Assembly (NCBI GenBank): GCA_021299375.1
Contig: JAJTGR010000022.1
Location: 1 to 64,000 of the forward strand
Source of the DNA: Gemmatimonadota bacterium
GTDB lineage: Bacteria > Gemmatimonadota > Gemmatimonadetes > Gemmatimonadales > Gemmatimonadaceae
Reading direction: 5' to 3'
Length of the DNA: 64,000 nucleotides
This document shows positions 7,876 to 56,978 of this stretch, piece after piece. Each line of letters begins with the position of its first letter. The stretch's first letter is position 1. The notes beneath the pieces were generated by a model. The model was not told where the DNA came from. It made no database searches and saw nothing but the letters and a program-made list of their open reading frames with translations. The position numbers and the translations under genes are program-made.

Positions 7876-10230
7876 TCAGGCGAAGGTGGCGCGCCGCAGT
7901 CGCAGCGAGTTGCTGACCACACTGACGGAACTGAAGGCCATCGCGGCACTGGCGAGAATGGGGCTGAGCTGCACGCCGAACGCGGGATAGAGGGCACCCG
8001 CCGCGATCGGGATGCCGATGACGTTGTAGATGAACGCCCAGAACAGGTTCTGCTTCATGGTGCGCATCGTACGGCGCGACAGCGCGATCGCCCGCACCAC
8101 CCCCTGCAGATCGCCACGCATCAGCACTACGTCACCCGCTTCCATGGCAACGTCGGTGCCACTGCCGATCGCCATGCCGACATCGGCCTGCGCCAGCGCG
8201 GGGGCATCGTTGATGCCGTCGCCGACCATCGCCACCACGGCGCCGGCCTCCTGCAGGCGCTTGATTTCGGCCACCTTGCCCTCCGGCAACACACCGGCAA
8301 CGACGCGGTCGATTCCCGCCTCACCGGCAATGGCCCGCGCGGTGCGTTCATGATCACCGGTGAGCATCACCACCTGCAGCCCCAACGCGTGCAGTTGGGT
8401 GATCGCCGACCTCGAACTGTCACGCAACGGGTCCGCCACGGCCACAACCCCCGCGAGGGCGCCATCGATCGCCACGAAGACCGCCGTGCGTCCGTTCGCG
8501 GCCAACCGCGCGGCCTCCCCTTCGAGAGGCGCGACCGGCACCCCCCAGTCCTGCAGGAAGGCGGCGTTGCCCACGACCACGGCGTGTTCGCACACGACGC
8601 CGTGCACACCCCGGCCCGTCACCGACGCGAAGGCGTCTGGCGTCGTCAGGGCGAGCCCGCGCGCGCCTGCCTCGCGCACGAGGGCATCGGCGAGCGGATG
8701 CTCGCTGGACCGTTCGAGGGAAGCGACCAGTTGCAGCAGCTGGTCAGCGGTCAACGCCACACGCGGCGCCACGAGCAGGTCGGTCACGACTGGCGTCCCG
8801 GCGGTGACGGTGCCCGTCTTGTCCACCACCACCGTGGTGATGTCGCCCGCGCGCTGGAGCGCCTCGCCGCCCTTGATGAGCACACCGAGTTCGGCGCCCT
8901 TACCACTGGCGACCATCACCGCCGTGGGCACGGCGAGCCCCATCGCACAGGGACAGGCAATGATAAGCACCGCCACCGCCGAGGCGAACGCGCGCACGAG
9001 TGGCGCCTCGTCGACCGCGAGGTACCACGCGGCGAAGGTCAGGACAGCGATCCCGAGTACGACAGGCACGAAGATGCCGCTGAGGCGATCGGCGAGATGC
9101 TGAATGGGCGCTCGGCTGCCCTGCGCATCACGCATGAGCTTCACGATCTGTGCCAGCACACTGTCGGCACCGAGCGTGGTGGCGCGATAGCGGAAGGCCC
9201 CGGTGCGATTGATGGTGCCGCCGATGATCTGGTCCCCCGCTCGCTTGGCCACCGGCATCGACTCGCCGGTGAGCATGCTTTCGTCGACGGCACTCTCGCC
9301 GGACGTCACGACCCCATCCACCGGGATTCGCTCGCCGGGGCGGACGAGCACGATCTCGTCCGGCTCCACGGTGTCGATGGGGGCGTCAACCTCCTCGCCA
9401 AAGCGTTCGACGCGGGCGGTCTGCGGTTGGAGGTCCACCAGCGTCCGGAGCGCGGCCGACGTGCGCAGCTTGGCCCGCGCCTCGAACATGGAGCCCGTGA
9501 GGATGAGGGCGATGATCAGGATGACCGCTTCGTAGTACACGTCGGGCGCCACGCCGCGGTCGGTGAAGAAGCGCGGCGCCACCGTGGCGACGAACGAGTA
9601 GGCAAACGCCGCGAGCGTCCCGACCGACACCAGCGTGTTCATGTCGGCGGCCCCGTGTCGGAGCGCCGCCCAGGCGCGCGTGTAGAAGTGGCGTCCCGCC
9701 CACCCCATGACCCACAGGGTCGTGATCAGCAGGCCGCCGGTGAGCCACCTGACGGGCACCGCGTAGAGCGAGGGCATCAGGGCGCGCAGCGCCGGGTCGA
9801 GGGCCGTCATGCTCCAGCGCATGAAGGGATCGGCCACGGCGCCGTGGCCGTGCGCTCCCGCCACGGTCGCCGAGAGGGCGCTCATGAGGGGCATGCTGAG
9901 CACCATGGCCAGCCCCCCCAGCACGCCGCTCACGATGGCCTTGTGCCGCAGCTCGCGAAACTCCGTCTGCTGGGCCCGATCGCGCGCTTCCTGTTCTTCG
10001 AAGGCCGTCTGATCGGGATTGGCGAGGGACGCGCCGTAGCCACTGTCGACGATGGCGTTCACCAGCCGCTCTGGAGACACCACCGCCGGATCGAAGGTGA
10101 TGGTGGCGCTCTTCATCATCAGGTTCACGGTCGCGTCGGCAACGCCGGGCTGCTTCTGCAGCGTGCGTTGCACGCGCGACGAACAGGCCGCGCAGGTCAT
10201 GCCGGTGACGGGGAGCCGCAGCGTCTCCAT
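7876..10230 (-). CDS. copA: Cu(I)-translocating P1B-type ATPase
   Basis: 784 aa copper exporter of the inner membrane. An N-terminal heavy-metal-associated domain carries [12 protein letters not shown]. Then come the actuator TGES-type loop (LTGESMPV), the metal-pore motif [12 protein letters not shown], the phosphorylation site [11 protein letters not shown] and the hinge [20 protein letters not shown]. The Cu(I)-specific YN ([10 protein letters not shown]) and MxFSS ([16 protein letters not shown]) residues sit in the last two helices, supporting copper over zinc or cadmium. It is preceded by the chaperone copZ (31 nt) and followed by csoR, forming a compact copper-detoxification operon. 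Confidence 0.95.
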
Positions 10231-50033: not shown

Positions 50034-50179
50034 GGCTGCGCAATCCTCGTCAAAGTACGCAAAGAGCGGTGGGGAGCGGTCCGGCCCCGTGATCCCGACG
50101 ACACGGGGGCGATCGACCTTCGGAAGATACAGTACCACGGAGTCGGCCCCCGCGAAACGGTCATCGCCTCGGCCCAATT

Positions 50180-50223
50180 CGTCAACGCTTTTGTTGACGT
50201 ATGTGGTAAAGCCGAGTTATACT
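50180..50223 (+). promoter_or_regulatory. sufR promoter with SufR-type operator (CAAC-N6-GTTG)
   Basis: A perfect 7-bp inverted repeat CGTCAAC-GCTTTT-GTTGACG spans 50180-50199. Its core CAAC-N6-GTTG equals the published SufR recognition sequence of cyanobacteria. The right half overlaps the -35 TTGACG (50194-50199); the -10 TATACT is at 50218-50223 (18-nt spacer), and the sufR ATG follows 6 nt later, so transcription is probably leaderless. Bound SufR would block the polymerase directly. Confidence 0.88.
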
Positions 50224-50229
50224 GTCCCC

Positions 50230-50892
50230 ATGGAGGACGTCGTCGGCGCACTGGGGGGATTTCGGGGAGTCCGGGCGGAGTTGCTGGTCGCGCTCAAGAA
50301 GGCGCAGCCGCTGACCGCCGGCGAGCTGGGCGAGCAGTTCGGCCTCACGGCCAACGCGCTCCGCCGGCACCTGAAAGCCCTCGAGGAGGACGGCTTGGTG
50401 CGCTACCAGCGCGAAGTGCGCGGGGTGGGCGCGCCGGTCTACGCCTACAGCCTGTCTCAGGCGGGCGAGGCGCTGTTTCCGCGGAGTTACGTGCAGGTGC
50501 TGGCCACCGCGCTCGATGCCCTGCGAGCCCAGCGGGGCGATCAGGCGGTCGAGGCGGTGCTGGAGGCGGAGTGGCGCCGGCTGGCGGAGGAGGCGGGGCC
50601 GGTGCTGGAGGCGCTCCCGCTCGAGGAGCGGGTGCCGCTGGTGGCGGAGTTGCTGACGGCCAAGGGCTACATGGCCGAAGTGGAGCCGACGTCGCTCACG
50701 CTGCGCATTCACAATTGCGCCATGCGTGAGATCGCCGAGCGGTTTCCCGAAGCGTGTGCAGTGGAAGCGAAGTTCGTGGAGCGACTGCTCGGGGTGCCGC
50801 TGGTGCGCAATGCCCACCGGCGCGACGGCTGCGGTCGCTGTGAATACGGTGTGTCCGGTCACCTTTCGGCGGTGCAACAGGAGCAGGCATGA
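50230..50892 (+). CDS. sufR: SufR-like Fe-S-sensing transcriptional repressor of the suf operon
   Basis: 220 aa. The N-terminal winged helix ([30 protein letters not shown]) resembles SufR and related ArsR/DeoR-type regulators. The C-terminal half has four Cys in [20 protein letters not shown] and [15 protein letters not shown]. In SufR these bind a [4Fe-4S] cluster that tells the protein when assembly capacity is adequate. It is the first gene of the suf operon and overlaps sufB by ATGA. Confidence 0.9.
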
Positions 50893-52383: not shown

Positions 52384-53129
<746 letters not shown>

Positions 53130-53133
<4 letters not shown>

Positions 53134-54440
53134 GCGCGGGTCTCCGTTTTGCCGAGCAGGCGATCGCGGCCTCGGTCGCCGACGCGCCCCGCTCACTCAA
53201 GTCGCTGCGCGAGGCGGGGGCGGAGGCGTTCAAGACGCTCGGCTTCCCGACCACGCGCAACGAGGACTGGCATTACACGAGCGTGTCGAGCATCGCGTCG
53301 GCCCGGTATGCACCGGCCATCGAGCGCGGGGTCGGTACGCTCGACGCGGCCGCGCTTGCGCCGTACACGTTCGGCGGCACGTGGCCGCTGGTGGTGTTCC
53401 TCAACGGCCGGTTTGCGCCGGCGCTGTCGAAGCTGGATGCGCTGCCGGCCGGCATCCGGGTGATGGACCTGGCCACGGCCTCGGTGGAGGAGCCGGAGCT
53501 GCTGGGCAAGGTCCTTGGCGCGGCAGCTCCCGCCGAGCGCGATGGATTCACGGCCCTCAACGCGGCGTTCGCCGGTGAGGGTACGCTGATTCATGTGGCC
53601 AAGGAGATGGTCATCGAGCATCCGGTGCACGTGCTGCATGTCATGGATGCCCACGGGGCGAACCTCATGAGCCATCCCCGGCACGTCATGGTGGTGGAGC
53701 GCCACGCCAAGGCGTCGGTGGTGGAGAGCTACGTGGCGCTCGCCGACGTGCCGTACTTCACGAACGCCGTGGTGGAAGCATTCGTCGAGGACGGGGCCAC
53801 GCTGCAGGTGGTGCGCATCCAGCGCGAGTCGCGCCAGGCGCAGCACATCGGCACGGTGGAGGCGCGCCAGGGGCGCGACAGCCATTTCCTCACGTTCACC
53901 TTCCAGACGGGCGCGGCGCTCTCGCGCAGCAATGTGTACACGGTGCTTGGCGGCGAGGGGTGCGGCTGCACGATCAACGGGCTGTACATGCTCGATGGCG
54001 AGCAGCACGGCGACCACCAGACGCGGGTGGAGCACGTGAAGGAGAACTGCTTCAGCCGCGAGGCCTACAAGGGGCTGATCGACAATCGCGCGCACGGCGT
54101 GTTCAACGGCAAGGTGTATGTGCACCCCGAAGCCCAGAAGACCGACGGCAAGCAGACCAACCACACCCTGCTGCTGTCGGAGCAGGCGCAGATCGACACC
54201 AAGCCGCAGCTCGAGATCTTCGCCGACGACGTCAAGTGCACCCACGGCGCGACCGTGGGGCGGATGGACGCGACGGCGCTGTTCTACCTCAAGAGCCGCG
54301 GCGTGGGCAAGGTGCTGGCCAAGCAGCTGCTCATGTACGCCTTCGCGGCCGACGTGCTGGAGACGATCGACAACCCGACGATCGTGGAGGCGCTCGAGAC
54401 GTTGACGGTGGAGCGGTTCACGGGGAACACGCAGCACTGA
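53130..54440 (+). CDS. sufD: Fe-S cluster assembly protein SufD
   Basis: 436 aa from GTG 53130, overlapping sufC (GTGA). The C-terminal beta-helix has the family pattern CGCTINGLYMLDGEQHGDHQTRVEHV, SREAYKGLIDNRAHGVFNGKVYV and FADDVKCTHGATVGRMDATALFYLKSRGV. The N-terminus (TLGFPTTRNEDWHYTS) is also typical. It partners SufB and SufC. Length is normal. Confidence 0.95.
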
Positions 54441-54448
54441 GCGGCATC

Positions 54449-54898
54449 ATGTCCGACCTCCAGGAGCTGTACCAGTCGGTCATCCTCGACCACAACCGGA
54501 AACCGCGCAATTTCGGCGCCCTGCCGGAGGCGAACCGGGAGGCGGATGGCCGCAATCCGCTCTGCGGCGACGAAGTGCACGTGGCCCTCGTGGTCGCCGA
54601 CGAGGTGATCACGGACGTGAAGTTCACCGGGCACGGCTGTGCGATCTCCAAGGCGTCGGCGTCACTCATGACCGCCGCCGTCAAGGGCAAGTCGCGCCGC
54701 GAGGCGGAGGCGTTGTTCCACCGTTTTCACGCCCTCGTGCTCGGCCAGGACCCCGAGGGCGGCAAGGACCTGGGGCCGCTGGTGGTGTTCTCGGGGGTGT
54801 CCCGGTTTCCGGTGCGCGTGAAATGCGCGTCGCTGGCGTGGCACACACTGCAGGCGGCGCTGGCGTCGGATTCGGCCGCGCCGGTGAGTACGGAGTAG
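54449..54898 (+). CDS. sufU: SufU-type Fe-S/sulfur-transfer scaffold, first copy
   Basis: 149 aa, 8 nt after sufD. The SufU pattern is DLQELYQSVILDHNRKPRNFG, NPLCGDEV, GHGCAISKASASLM, and RVKCASLAWHTL. It carries the three Cys plus the Asp of CGDE that bind zinc in SufU and receive sulfur from SufS. It is soluble. A second, more divergent copy closes the operon at 56511. Confidence 0.93.
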   Translation: MSDLQELYQSVILDHNRKPRNFGALPEANREADGRNPLCGDEVHVALVVADEVITDVKFTGHGCAISKASASLMTAAVKGKSRREAEALFHRFHALVLGQDPEGGKDLGPLVVFSGVSRFPVRVKCASLAWHTLQAALASDSAAPVSTE

Positions 54899-54901
54899 CC
54901 C

Positions 54902-55243
54902 GTGGAGCAGATGGAAACCGCGGGCCAGTCGTTCGTCCGGGTGGCGCGTATCCATGAGGTGGAGCCCGGCCTTCCGCTCGGGGTGATCCTGGACGATGGC
55001 CGCCGTATCTGCCTGGTGCGGGACGGCGAAACCATTCACGCCGTCGAAGATCGTTGTCCGCACCGGGACTTCGCCCTGTCCGGTGGCGATGTCGTGGCGC
55101 CGTGTGTGGTGGAGTGTCCATGGCACGGCGCCCGCTTCGACGTGCGGACCGGTGCGGTGCTCCAGGGGCCGGCCACCGACGCCCTTGCCACATTCGTCGT
55201 ACGTCTCGCGGACGGCGAGGTCCTCGTCGGCCCGCGTCGCTGA
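54902..55243 (+). CDS. Rieske-type [2Fe-2S] ferredoxin
   Basis: 113 aa from GTG 54902, 3 nt after sufU. Cluster motifs are RCPHRDFALSGG (CxH) and CPWHGARFD (CxxH), as in soluble Rieske ferredoxins of the NirD/BphF kind. It is placed between sufU and sufS, a position also found in many actinobacterial and related suf operons, so it may supply electrons to cluster assembly or report cluster status. The role is inferred from context only. Confidence 0.9.
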   Translation: MEQMETAGQSFVRVARIHEVEPGLPLGVILDDGRRICLVRDGETIHAVEDRCPHRDFALSGGDVVAPCVVECPWHGARFDVRTGAVLQGPATDALATFVVRLADGEVLVGPRR

Positions 55244-55279: not shown

Positions 55280-56503
55280 ATGTCTGCCTCGCTCGCCCCC
55301 CGCTCCGACTTCCCGCTGCTCGCGGCCGACCCCGGGTTGCACTACCTCGATTCGGCGGCGACCTCGCAAAAGCCGGTGGTGGTACTCGACGCCGTGCGCG
55401 CCTTCTACACCACGGCCAACGCCAACCCGCATCGTGGCGCGTATGCACTGGCGGCGCGGGCAACCGATCAGTATCACGAGGCCCGGGCCACGATCGCCCG
55501 CTTTGTGGGGGCCGCCGACAGCGACGGGGTGCTCTTCACGCGCGGAACCACCGAAGCCATGAATCTCGTGGCGTCGAGCTGGGGGCACAGCAATGTGCGC
55601 GCCGGTGACGAGATCGTGGTCACGGCCCTCGAGCACCACGCCAACTTCGTGCCGTGGCAACAGCTCGCCCGGGCCACAGGCGCGACGCTGCGCATCGTGG
55701 AGCTCACGCCGCAACAAACCATCGACCTCGACCACCTGCGGACGCTCGTCACCACGCGCACCAAGCTCGTGGCCATCACGCATGTGTCGAACGCCGTGGG
55801 GGCGATCACGCCCCTTGAGGACGCCGTGCACATCATTCGCGCGCGATCGGCGGCGGTGATCGTGGTGGACGGGGCGCAGGCCGTACCGCACCTGCCGGTG
55901 GCGTTCGATGCCCTTGGCATCGACTTCTATGCCTTCAGCGGGCACAAGCTGCTTGGCCCAATGGGTATCGGCTGCCTGATCGGCAACCGCGCTGTGCTCG
56001 AGTCCATGCCCCCGTACCAGTTCGGCGGCGACATGATCGAGTGGGTTCGCGACACCGACAGCACGTGGAACGTGCTGCCGCACAAGTTCGAGGCGGGGAC
56101 GCCGAATGCGGCGGATGCGGTGGGGCTCGCCGCCGCCGTTCGGTACCTGGACAGCCTGGGCATGGATCGTGTGCGGACGCACGAGGTGGCCCTGCTCGAG
56201 CTCGCGGAGTCGCGCATCCGCACCTTGCCGGGGGTCACGGTCTACGGGCCACCGGCCGCGCAGCGGAGCGGCGTACTCAGTTTCTCACTCGCGGACGTGC
56301 ACCCGCACGACCTGGCGACGATCCTCGACCAGCACGGCGTCTGCATCCGGGCCGGCCACCATTGTGCCCAGCCGCTGATGCGGCGCCTTGGCGTCAGCGC
56401 CACCGCGCGGGCCTCGTTCTACGTGTACAGCGACGCCGCGGATGTCGAGGCGCTGGTGGAGGCGTTGACGGCCGCGCAGGGCATCTTTGCCACGGCCGAC
56501 TGA
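55280..56503 (+). CDS. sufS: cysteine desulfurase SufS
   Basis: 407 aa PLP enzyme of the group II (SufS/CsdA) type. YLDSAATSQKPVVVLDAVRAFY opens the fold. GHKLLGPMGIGCLIG gives the PLP Lys, and RAGHHCAQPLMRRLG gives the catalytic Cys on a short, SufS-type loop. RGTTEAMNLVA and THVSNAVGAITPL support it. It removes sulfur from cysteine and passes it to SufU. The normal length and operon position confirm the call. Confidence 0.95.
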   Translation: MSASLAPRSDFPLLAADPGLHYLDSAATSQKPVVVLDAVRAFYTTANANPHRGAYALAARATDQYHEARATIARFVGAADSDGVLFTRGTTEAMNLVASSWGHSNVRAGDEIVVTALEHHANFVPWQQLARATGATLRIVELTPQQTIDLDHLRTLVTTRTKLVAITHVSNAVGAITPLEDAVHIIRARSAAVIVVDGAQAVPHLPVAFDALGIDFYAFSGHKLLGPMGIGCLIGNRAVLESMPPYQFGGDMIEWVRDTDSTWNVLPHKFEAGTPNAADAVGLAAAVRYLDSLGMDRVRTHEVALLELAESRIRTLPGVTVYGPPAAQRSGVLSFSLADVHPHDLATILDQHGVCIRAGHHCAQPLMRRLGVSATARASFYVYSDAADVEALVEALTAAQGIFATAD

Positions 56504-56510
56504 GACTGCG

Positions 56511-56978
56511 GTGCCCATCGCGCCTGGCGATCCCGTGGGGCCGGTCGCGCCGACGGCGTCGATCGGCGCCATGTACCAGGAGGCGTTGCTGGCCCATTAT
56601 CGGGCGCCACACAACCGGCGGGAGCTGCCCGACGCCACCGGCGTCGCCACGCACCGCAATCCCGTTTGCGGGGACGAAATCCGGGTCATGGTGCGACTCG
56701 ACGGTCACCGCGTGGTGGACGTGGCGTTCAGCGGTCGTGGCTGCTCGATCGCCACGGCCTCGGCGTCGATGATGACGGAGGCCGTGACCGGGCGAACGGT
56801 GCGCGAGGCGATGGCGGTGGCGGATGCGGTGGACCGGATGCTGGCTGGGGGCGAGGAGGGGGCACTGCCGGTATCGCTCACGCCACTCCTTGGGGTGGCG
56901 CCGTTTGCCGGGCGGCACGGCTGCGCGAGGATGCCATGGCAGGCATTGCGGGACGCAGTGCACGGCGGGTCGGGGTGA
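56511..56978 (+). CDS. SufU/NifU-N-like scaffold, second copy
   Basis: 155 aa from GTG 56511; a TTG at 56487 or the ATG at 56571 are alternatives. The core YQEALLAHYRAPHNRRELPDATG, NPVCGDEIRVMVRLDG, GRGCSIATASASMMTEAV and GRHGCARMPWQAL retains the three Cys and the Asp of SufU. It lacks the exact FGALPEAN-type beginning and has an Ala/Gly-rich loop, so it is a diverged paralogue of the sufU at 54449. It may deliver sulfur or clusters to a different target. Confidence 0.85.
   Translation: MPIAPGDPVGPVAPTASIGAMYQEALLAHYRAPHNRRELPDATGVATHRNPVCGDEIRVMVRLDGHRVVDVAFSGRGCSIATASASMMTEAVTGRTVREAMAVADAVDRMLAGGEEGALPVSLTPLLGVAPFAGRHGCARMPWQALRDAVHGGSG

What the first reader, a model, noticed from the sequence alone, without database searches (positions are those of the whole stretch)
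50180..50229. A textbook SufR operator overlapping the -35 box of sufR
CGTCAAC-GCTTTT-GTTGACG contains CAAC-N6-GTTG, the box described for cyanobacterial SufR, and overlaps TTGACG of a promoter TTGACG-18-TATACT that ends 6 nt from the ATG. The site, the promoter and the Cys-containing regulator agree, predicting simple steric repression of an eight-gene operon by a 4Fe-4S SufR in a non-cyanobacterial phylum.
Basis: partly seen in the sequence, partly recalled or inferred. Interest (0 to 1): 0.7.

Follow-up and report, generated by a model that had tools for sequence, protein, structure and literature searches.

The report
SufR-type operator of a suf operon
A bacterium of the phylum Gemmatimonadota carries, on the promoter of its iron-sulfur-cluster assembly operon, a conserved 26-base palindrome that is very likely the landing site of the operon's own SufR-like repressor; this extends a known control switch to another phylum but is not a new kind of switch.

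Summary
In detail: CGTCAAC-N6-GTTGACG lies at 50180-50199, its right arm shares bases with -35 TTGACG, -10 TATACT follows after 18 nt, and ATG starts 6 nt later. CAAC-N6-GTTG alone is no better than chance (29 sites in the genome, 24 for a control pattern). Comparison makes it real. Of 53 Gemmatimonadaceae sufR promoters, 52 carry a 24-26 bp box, ATTCG(T/C)nnAC-N6-GTTGACG(A/T)A, in otherwise unconserved DNA; 28 suf operons of the same family without sufR lack it (50/53 against 0/28 at 11 or more of 14 bases, p about 1e-18). It occurs once in the genome. A second family has it 7/7 times, in five downstream of the apparent -10, which favours repression by occlusion. Two corrections: 'textbook CAAC-N6-GTTG' is not what is conserved (21/53 exact; outer TTCG and inner AC..GT are kept), and SufR looks like a one-operon regulator. 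The regulator is SufR-like (winged helix, three invariant cysteines at M. tuberculosis SufR spacing, first gene of the operon) but below the cyanobacterial SufR cut-off. Binding, cluster and repression are untested. Verdict: new member of a known kind, with a longer, drifting operator.

The parts
50177..50202 (.). SufR-type operator, 26 bp, arms ATTCGTCAAC / GTTGACGTAT with 6-nt centre
   Evidence: conserved positions -13 to +12 around the centre, flanks near 0 bits; unique in genome; absent from sufR-less suf operons
50194..50199 (+). -35 hexamer TTGACG, inside the right arm
50218..50223 (+). -10 hexamer TATACT; predicted transcript start at or next to A of ATG (50230)
   Evidence: same layout in relatives
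50230..50892 (+). sufR: 220-aa winged-helix regulator with C163-x12-C176-x27-C204 (C201 extra)
   Evidence: only SufR_cyano match in the genome
50889..52322 (+). sufB, overlaps sufR stop by 4 nt
   Evidence: SUFBD_core 5.9e-78
52384..53133 (+). sufC
   Evidence: ABC_tran 2.2e-22
53130..54440 (+). sufD
   Evidence: SUFBD_core 1.7e-81
54449..54898 (+). sufU-like scaffold, first copy
   Evidence: NifU_N 2e-18
54902..55243 (+). Rieske-type ferredoxin (start 54902 or 54911)
   Evidence: Rieske 5.3e-18
55280..56503 (+). sufS cysteine desulfurase
   Evidence: Aminotran_5 1.3e-141
56487..56978 (+). sufU-like scaffold, second copy (start uncertain: 56487 or 56571)
   Evidence: NifU_N 1.1e-23

Best explanation
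The palindrome at 50177-50202 is the autoregulatory operator of the SufR-like protein encoded just downstream. A SufR dimer, most likely only when it carries its Fe-S cluster, binds both arms and covers the -35 and the DNA just upstream, so RNA polymerase cannot load and the whole sufR-sufB-C-D-U-Rieske-S-U transcript, which starts at the sufR ATG, is kept low. When clusters are scarce or damaged, apo-SufR lets go and the operon is transcribed until cluster supply is restored. Shown here: box, promoter, gene order, conservation, linkage of box to sufR, uniqueness in the genome, invariant cysteines. Inferred: dimer binding, cluster dependence, repression, leaderless start.
For: Box conserved in sufR promoters of Gemmatimonadaceae, 52/53 at 10 or more of 14 positions, with no conservation in flanking DNA. 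28 suf operons of the same family without sufR: 0/28 at 11 or more, against 50/53 (Fisher about 1e-18). In 149 relatives nearly every exact hit of the box lies at sufR. Second family 7/7, a test independent of how the box was defined, about 5% expected per promoter; in five of them the box lies 12-22 nt before the start codon, downstream of the apparent -10. sufB follows sufR on the same strand wherever the contig reaches it. C163, C176, C204 invariant in 89/89, with the x12 and x27 spacing of C203/C216/C244 that M. tuberculosis SufR needs (PMC6034842). Modelled N-terminal winged helix, mean pLDDT 87.
Against: No binding or expression data. 27 of the 32 sufR promoters tested in family f2 do not carry this box although sufR heads the suf operon there; a related variant TTCGyACCAA-N4-TTGGTrCGAA is seen in only about 8. 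The right arm is partly constrained by the -35. In the 53, the box was defined and counted on the same sequences, and about half are from one genus. An operator centre at about -40.5 is also where class II activators sit.
Confidence: 0.8

Rival explanations
1. SufR binds the box but activates: a site centred near -40.5 is the class II activator position, and apo- or holo-SufR would recruit polymerase.
For: Position of the centre relative to the predicted start.
Against: -35 and -10 are near consensus (10/12) and need no help; in five family-f3 promoters the box lies downstream of the apparent -10, where only hindrance is plausible; characterised SufR proteins repress (PMC6034842, PMC8593673, PMC13421787).
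Confidence: 0.07
2. The operator is real but is read mainly by another factor (for example an iron or redox regulator) and SufR acts elsewhere.
For: Most f2 sufR genes lack this box; no protein-DNA data.
Against: Box presence tracks sufR presence within one family; the box is found only at sufR in the genome.
Confidence: 0.08
3. There is no operator; conservation reflects only the -35 region of a strong promoter plus a chance repeat.
For: GTTGAC in the right arm is the -35; CAAC-N6-GTTG is about as frequent as its control genome-wide.
Against: The left arm ATTCG..AC lies outside any promoter element and is strongly conserved (1.2-1.95 bits at most positions); sufR-less suf operons of the family lack it; f3 keeps the palindrome away from the -35.
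Confidence: 0.05

Closest known systems
Cyanobacterial SufR (Synechocystis sll0088) and its CAAC-N6-GTTG sites
   Same: Winged-helix Fe-S regulator linked to suf genes; inverted repeat containing CAAC-N6-GTTG in the window copy.
   Different: Below the SufR_cyano equivalog cut-off (110 vs 178.8 bits); sufR heads the operon; the conserved box is longer and the exact CAAC is not kept in most relatives.
Streptomyces avermitilis / Corynebacterium glutamicum SufR
   Same: One autoregulatory site at the sufR promoter of the suf operon, CAAC-N6-GTTG (S. avermitilis) or GAAC-N6-GTTG (C. glutamicum; PMC11995493); the GAAC form also occurs in nine family members here.
   Different: Their site overlaps the -10 and the start site; here it overlaps the -35 (in family f3 of the same order it mostly lies downstream of the -10).
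Mycobacterium tuberculosis SufR (Rv1460)
   Same: Cysteine spacing C-x12-C-x27-C identical to C203/C216/C244, leaderless first gene, suf repressor (PMC6034842).
   Different: No N-terminal extension; the M. tuberculosis operator was not compared here.

Membership tests
SufR (broad, suf-operon Fe-S repressors) | N-terminal winged HTH | tested here: met
   HTH_20 3.5e-11, HTH_5 4.3e-9; model; best Foldseek hits are winged-helix regulators
SufR (broad, suf-operon Fe-S repressors) | three conserved C-terminal cluster cysteines | tested here: met
   C163, C176, C204 in 89/89, spacing as Rv1460 (PMC6034842)
SufR (broad, suf-operon Fe-S repressors) | linked to sufBCDS | tested here: met
SufR (broad, suf-operon Fe-S repressors) | inverted-repeat operator CAAC-N6-GTTG at the suf promoter | tested here: inconclusive
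   present in the window copy; exact in only 21/53 relatives, though a longer box containing it is conserved
SufR (broad, suf-operon Fe-S repressors) | binds a [4Fe-4S] cluster and represses when holo | not testable with these tools
   needs biochemistry
SufR_cyano equivalog TIGR02702 | score above the curated cut-off of 178.8 bits | tested here: not met
   110 bits, E 1.3e-31

The most novel reading that the evidence does not exclude
SufR in Gemmatimonadales reads a 24-26 bp operator defined by outer TTCG..CGAA arms, and this operator has slid between promoter positions (over the -35 in one family, downstream of the -10 in another) and changed its inner half-site (CAAC-N6-GTTG to CCAA-N4-TTGG) while keeping the outer arms: operator turnover under one local repressor, implying that the published CAAC-N6-GTTG is only part of the SufR site.
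Probability: 0.4. Interest if true: 0.5.

Novelty: new member of a known kind. Interest (0 to 1): 0.35.

Why it matters
[quoted passage not shown] That can be tested directly and may correct the working consensus used to search for SufR sites.

Tried and rejected
CAAC-N6-GTTG as a genome-wide search motif: rejected, 29 against 24 control. Further SufR targets in the genome: none with the full box; the 2-3 mismatch sites examined all fall inside long open frames, though in such GC-rich DNA that is weak. Relatives in viral contigs: none. The f1 box as a universal box of the order: rejected for f2. PDB sequence search: no SufR structure; fold search gave mainly winged-helix hits with poor overall overlap. 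The S. avermitilis paper was not held.

Full report
WHAT IS THERE. The stretch reads ATTCGTCAAC-GCTTTT-GTTGACGTAT (50177-50202), then GTGGTAAAGCCGAGT, TATACT (50218-50223), GTCCCC, ATG (50230). The inner 7-6-7 repeat is perfect; extended to ten-base arms, 9 of 10 positions pair. The promoter scan finds this as the only promoter-like site in 4 kb, 10 of 12 consensus bases. With six bases between -10 and ATG the transcript would start at or beside the ATG, so the messenger is probably leaderless (inference; M. tuberculosis sufR is also leaderless, PMC6034842).

CHANCE. CAACN6GTTG is expected 0.5 times per window and occurs 29 times in the genome against 24 for the reversed pattern. So the short motif proves nothing. 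The evidence has to come from comparison.

CONSERVATION. Relatives of the regulator were fetched from 149 genomes; named records of the same proteins are Gemmatimonadota, the closest being Gemmatimonadaceae and Gemmatimonas. sufB follows on the same strand at the expected distance wherever the contig reaches that far. Anchored on the right arm, 47 promoters of the window's family (f1) show high information from -13 to +12 around the centre and near zero over most of -30 to -17. In 53 promoters the box scores 10 or more of 14 symmetric positions in 52, and 11 or more in 50; shuffled upstream sequences reach 10 in about 7%.

THE CONTROL. Members of the same family without a close sufR were searched for sufB and 28 upstream regions examined: none reaches 11, Fisher p about 1e-18. 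Phylogeny makes the p-value optimistic, since one genus supplies about half of the positives, and the box was defined on those positives. The independent check is family f3 of the same order: 7 of 7 promoters carry the box at 11-14 of 14, with about 5% expected each.

WHAT IS CONSERVED. Left arm T53 T46 C50 G46 (T/C)51 of 53, then two variable positions (C23 G15 A13; A31 C20), then A53 C52. Right arm G52 T53 T53 G47 A46 C51, then G38, A or T, A52. So 'CAAC' is exact in 21 of 53. The right-hand TG is kept in 47 of 53, but there it is also the -35. In f3, where the box is mostly away from the -35, both outer arms TTCG (6/7) and CGAA (7/7) are kept, and exact CAAC-N6-GTTG occurs in 2 of 7. The C. 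glutamicum GAAC-N6-GTTG (PMC11995493) fits this.

POSITION. In the window's family the box ends 23-39 nt before the start codon and overlaps the -35. In five of seven f3 promoters it lies 12-22 nt before the ATG, just after a TTAGAT- or TAATCT-like -10. A site that can sit on either side of the -10 fits a steric repressor and not an activator. In S. avermitilis the site overlaps the -10 and the start (PMC11995493).

LIMITS. In family f2 only 5 of 32 promoters reach 10 of 14, which is not far above chance. Several carry TTCGyACCAA-N4-TTGGTrCGAA, same length and same outer arms (4 of 32 at 15 or more of 18, against 0.03% of shuffles), and more carry the left half. Whether this is the f2 SufR site is unproven.

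THE REGULATOR. 220 residues, winged helix, SufR_cyano as best curated family but under its cut-off, and the only such match in the genome. C163, C176 and C204 are invariant in 89 sequences; C201 is not (76/89). Rv1460 shows the same pattern: C203, C216 and C244 needed, C242 not (PMC6034842). The AlphaFold model has mean pLDDT 87. A phylum-wide sample shows strong hits only within the order of the window; weaker hits elsewhere (E about 1e-39 and weaker) look like paralogues, not tested.

REGULON. The full box occurs once in this genome. Across 149 genomes the exact box hits sit at sufR with a handful of exceptions, one of them a duplicated operator fragment in G026. SufR here appears to be a one-operon regulator.

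MECHANISM. Holo-SufR dimer on the box blocks polymerase at the -35; loss of the cluster frees the operon; the operon rebuilds clusters and restores repression. Steps shown: site, promoter, linkage, cysteines. Steps inferred: binding, cluster type, direction of control.

NOVELTY. No held paper contains both SufR and Gemmatimonadetes, and a 2021 review limits SufR to Cyanobacteria and some Actinobacteria (PMC8593673). The kind of system is known; the phylum, the longer box and its mobility are the new parts.

Noticed in passing
L230:1754-1790 and 8350-8386 (genome G026): A second exact copy of the sufR operator plus about 11 nt lies 6.6 kb upstream of the real one; the block between holds a 1403-aa hybrid sensor/response regulator, as if an insertion split off or duplicated the old operator edge.
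   Followed up: partly
window 50212-50215; similar in L065-L067, L201, L209, L215, L226: A CCGA element just upstream of the -10 is shared by suf promoters with and without SufR, so it looks like a lineage promoter feature rather than part of the operator.
   Followed up: no
window 54449-54898 and 56487-56978: The operon carries two SufU/NifU_N-type scaffold genes, with a Rieske-type ferredoxin and sufS between them.
   Followed up: no
L200-L227: Suf operons without sufR often start sufB after a Shine-Dalgarno-like GGAG, whereas sufR-led operons look leaderless.
   Followed up: no
L187 (record named Candidatus Kuenenia), L145 (record named Solirubrobacterales): Both contigs carry typical Gemmatimonadaceae sufR operators and genes, suggesting misbinned or misnamed records.
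   Followed up: no
L231:1559-1582 (genome G104): A perfect TTCGTCAAC-N6-GTTGACGAA palindrome in an f2 genome that has no close sufR; context not examined.
   Followed up: no
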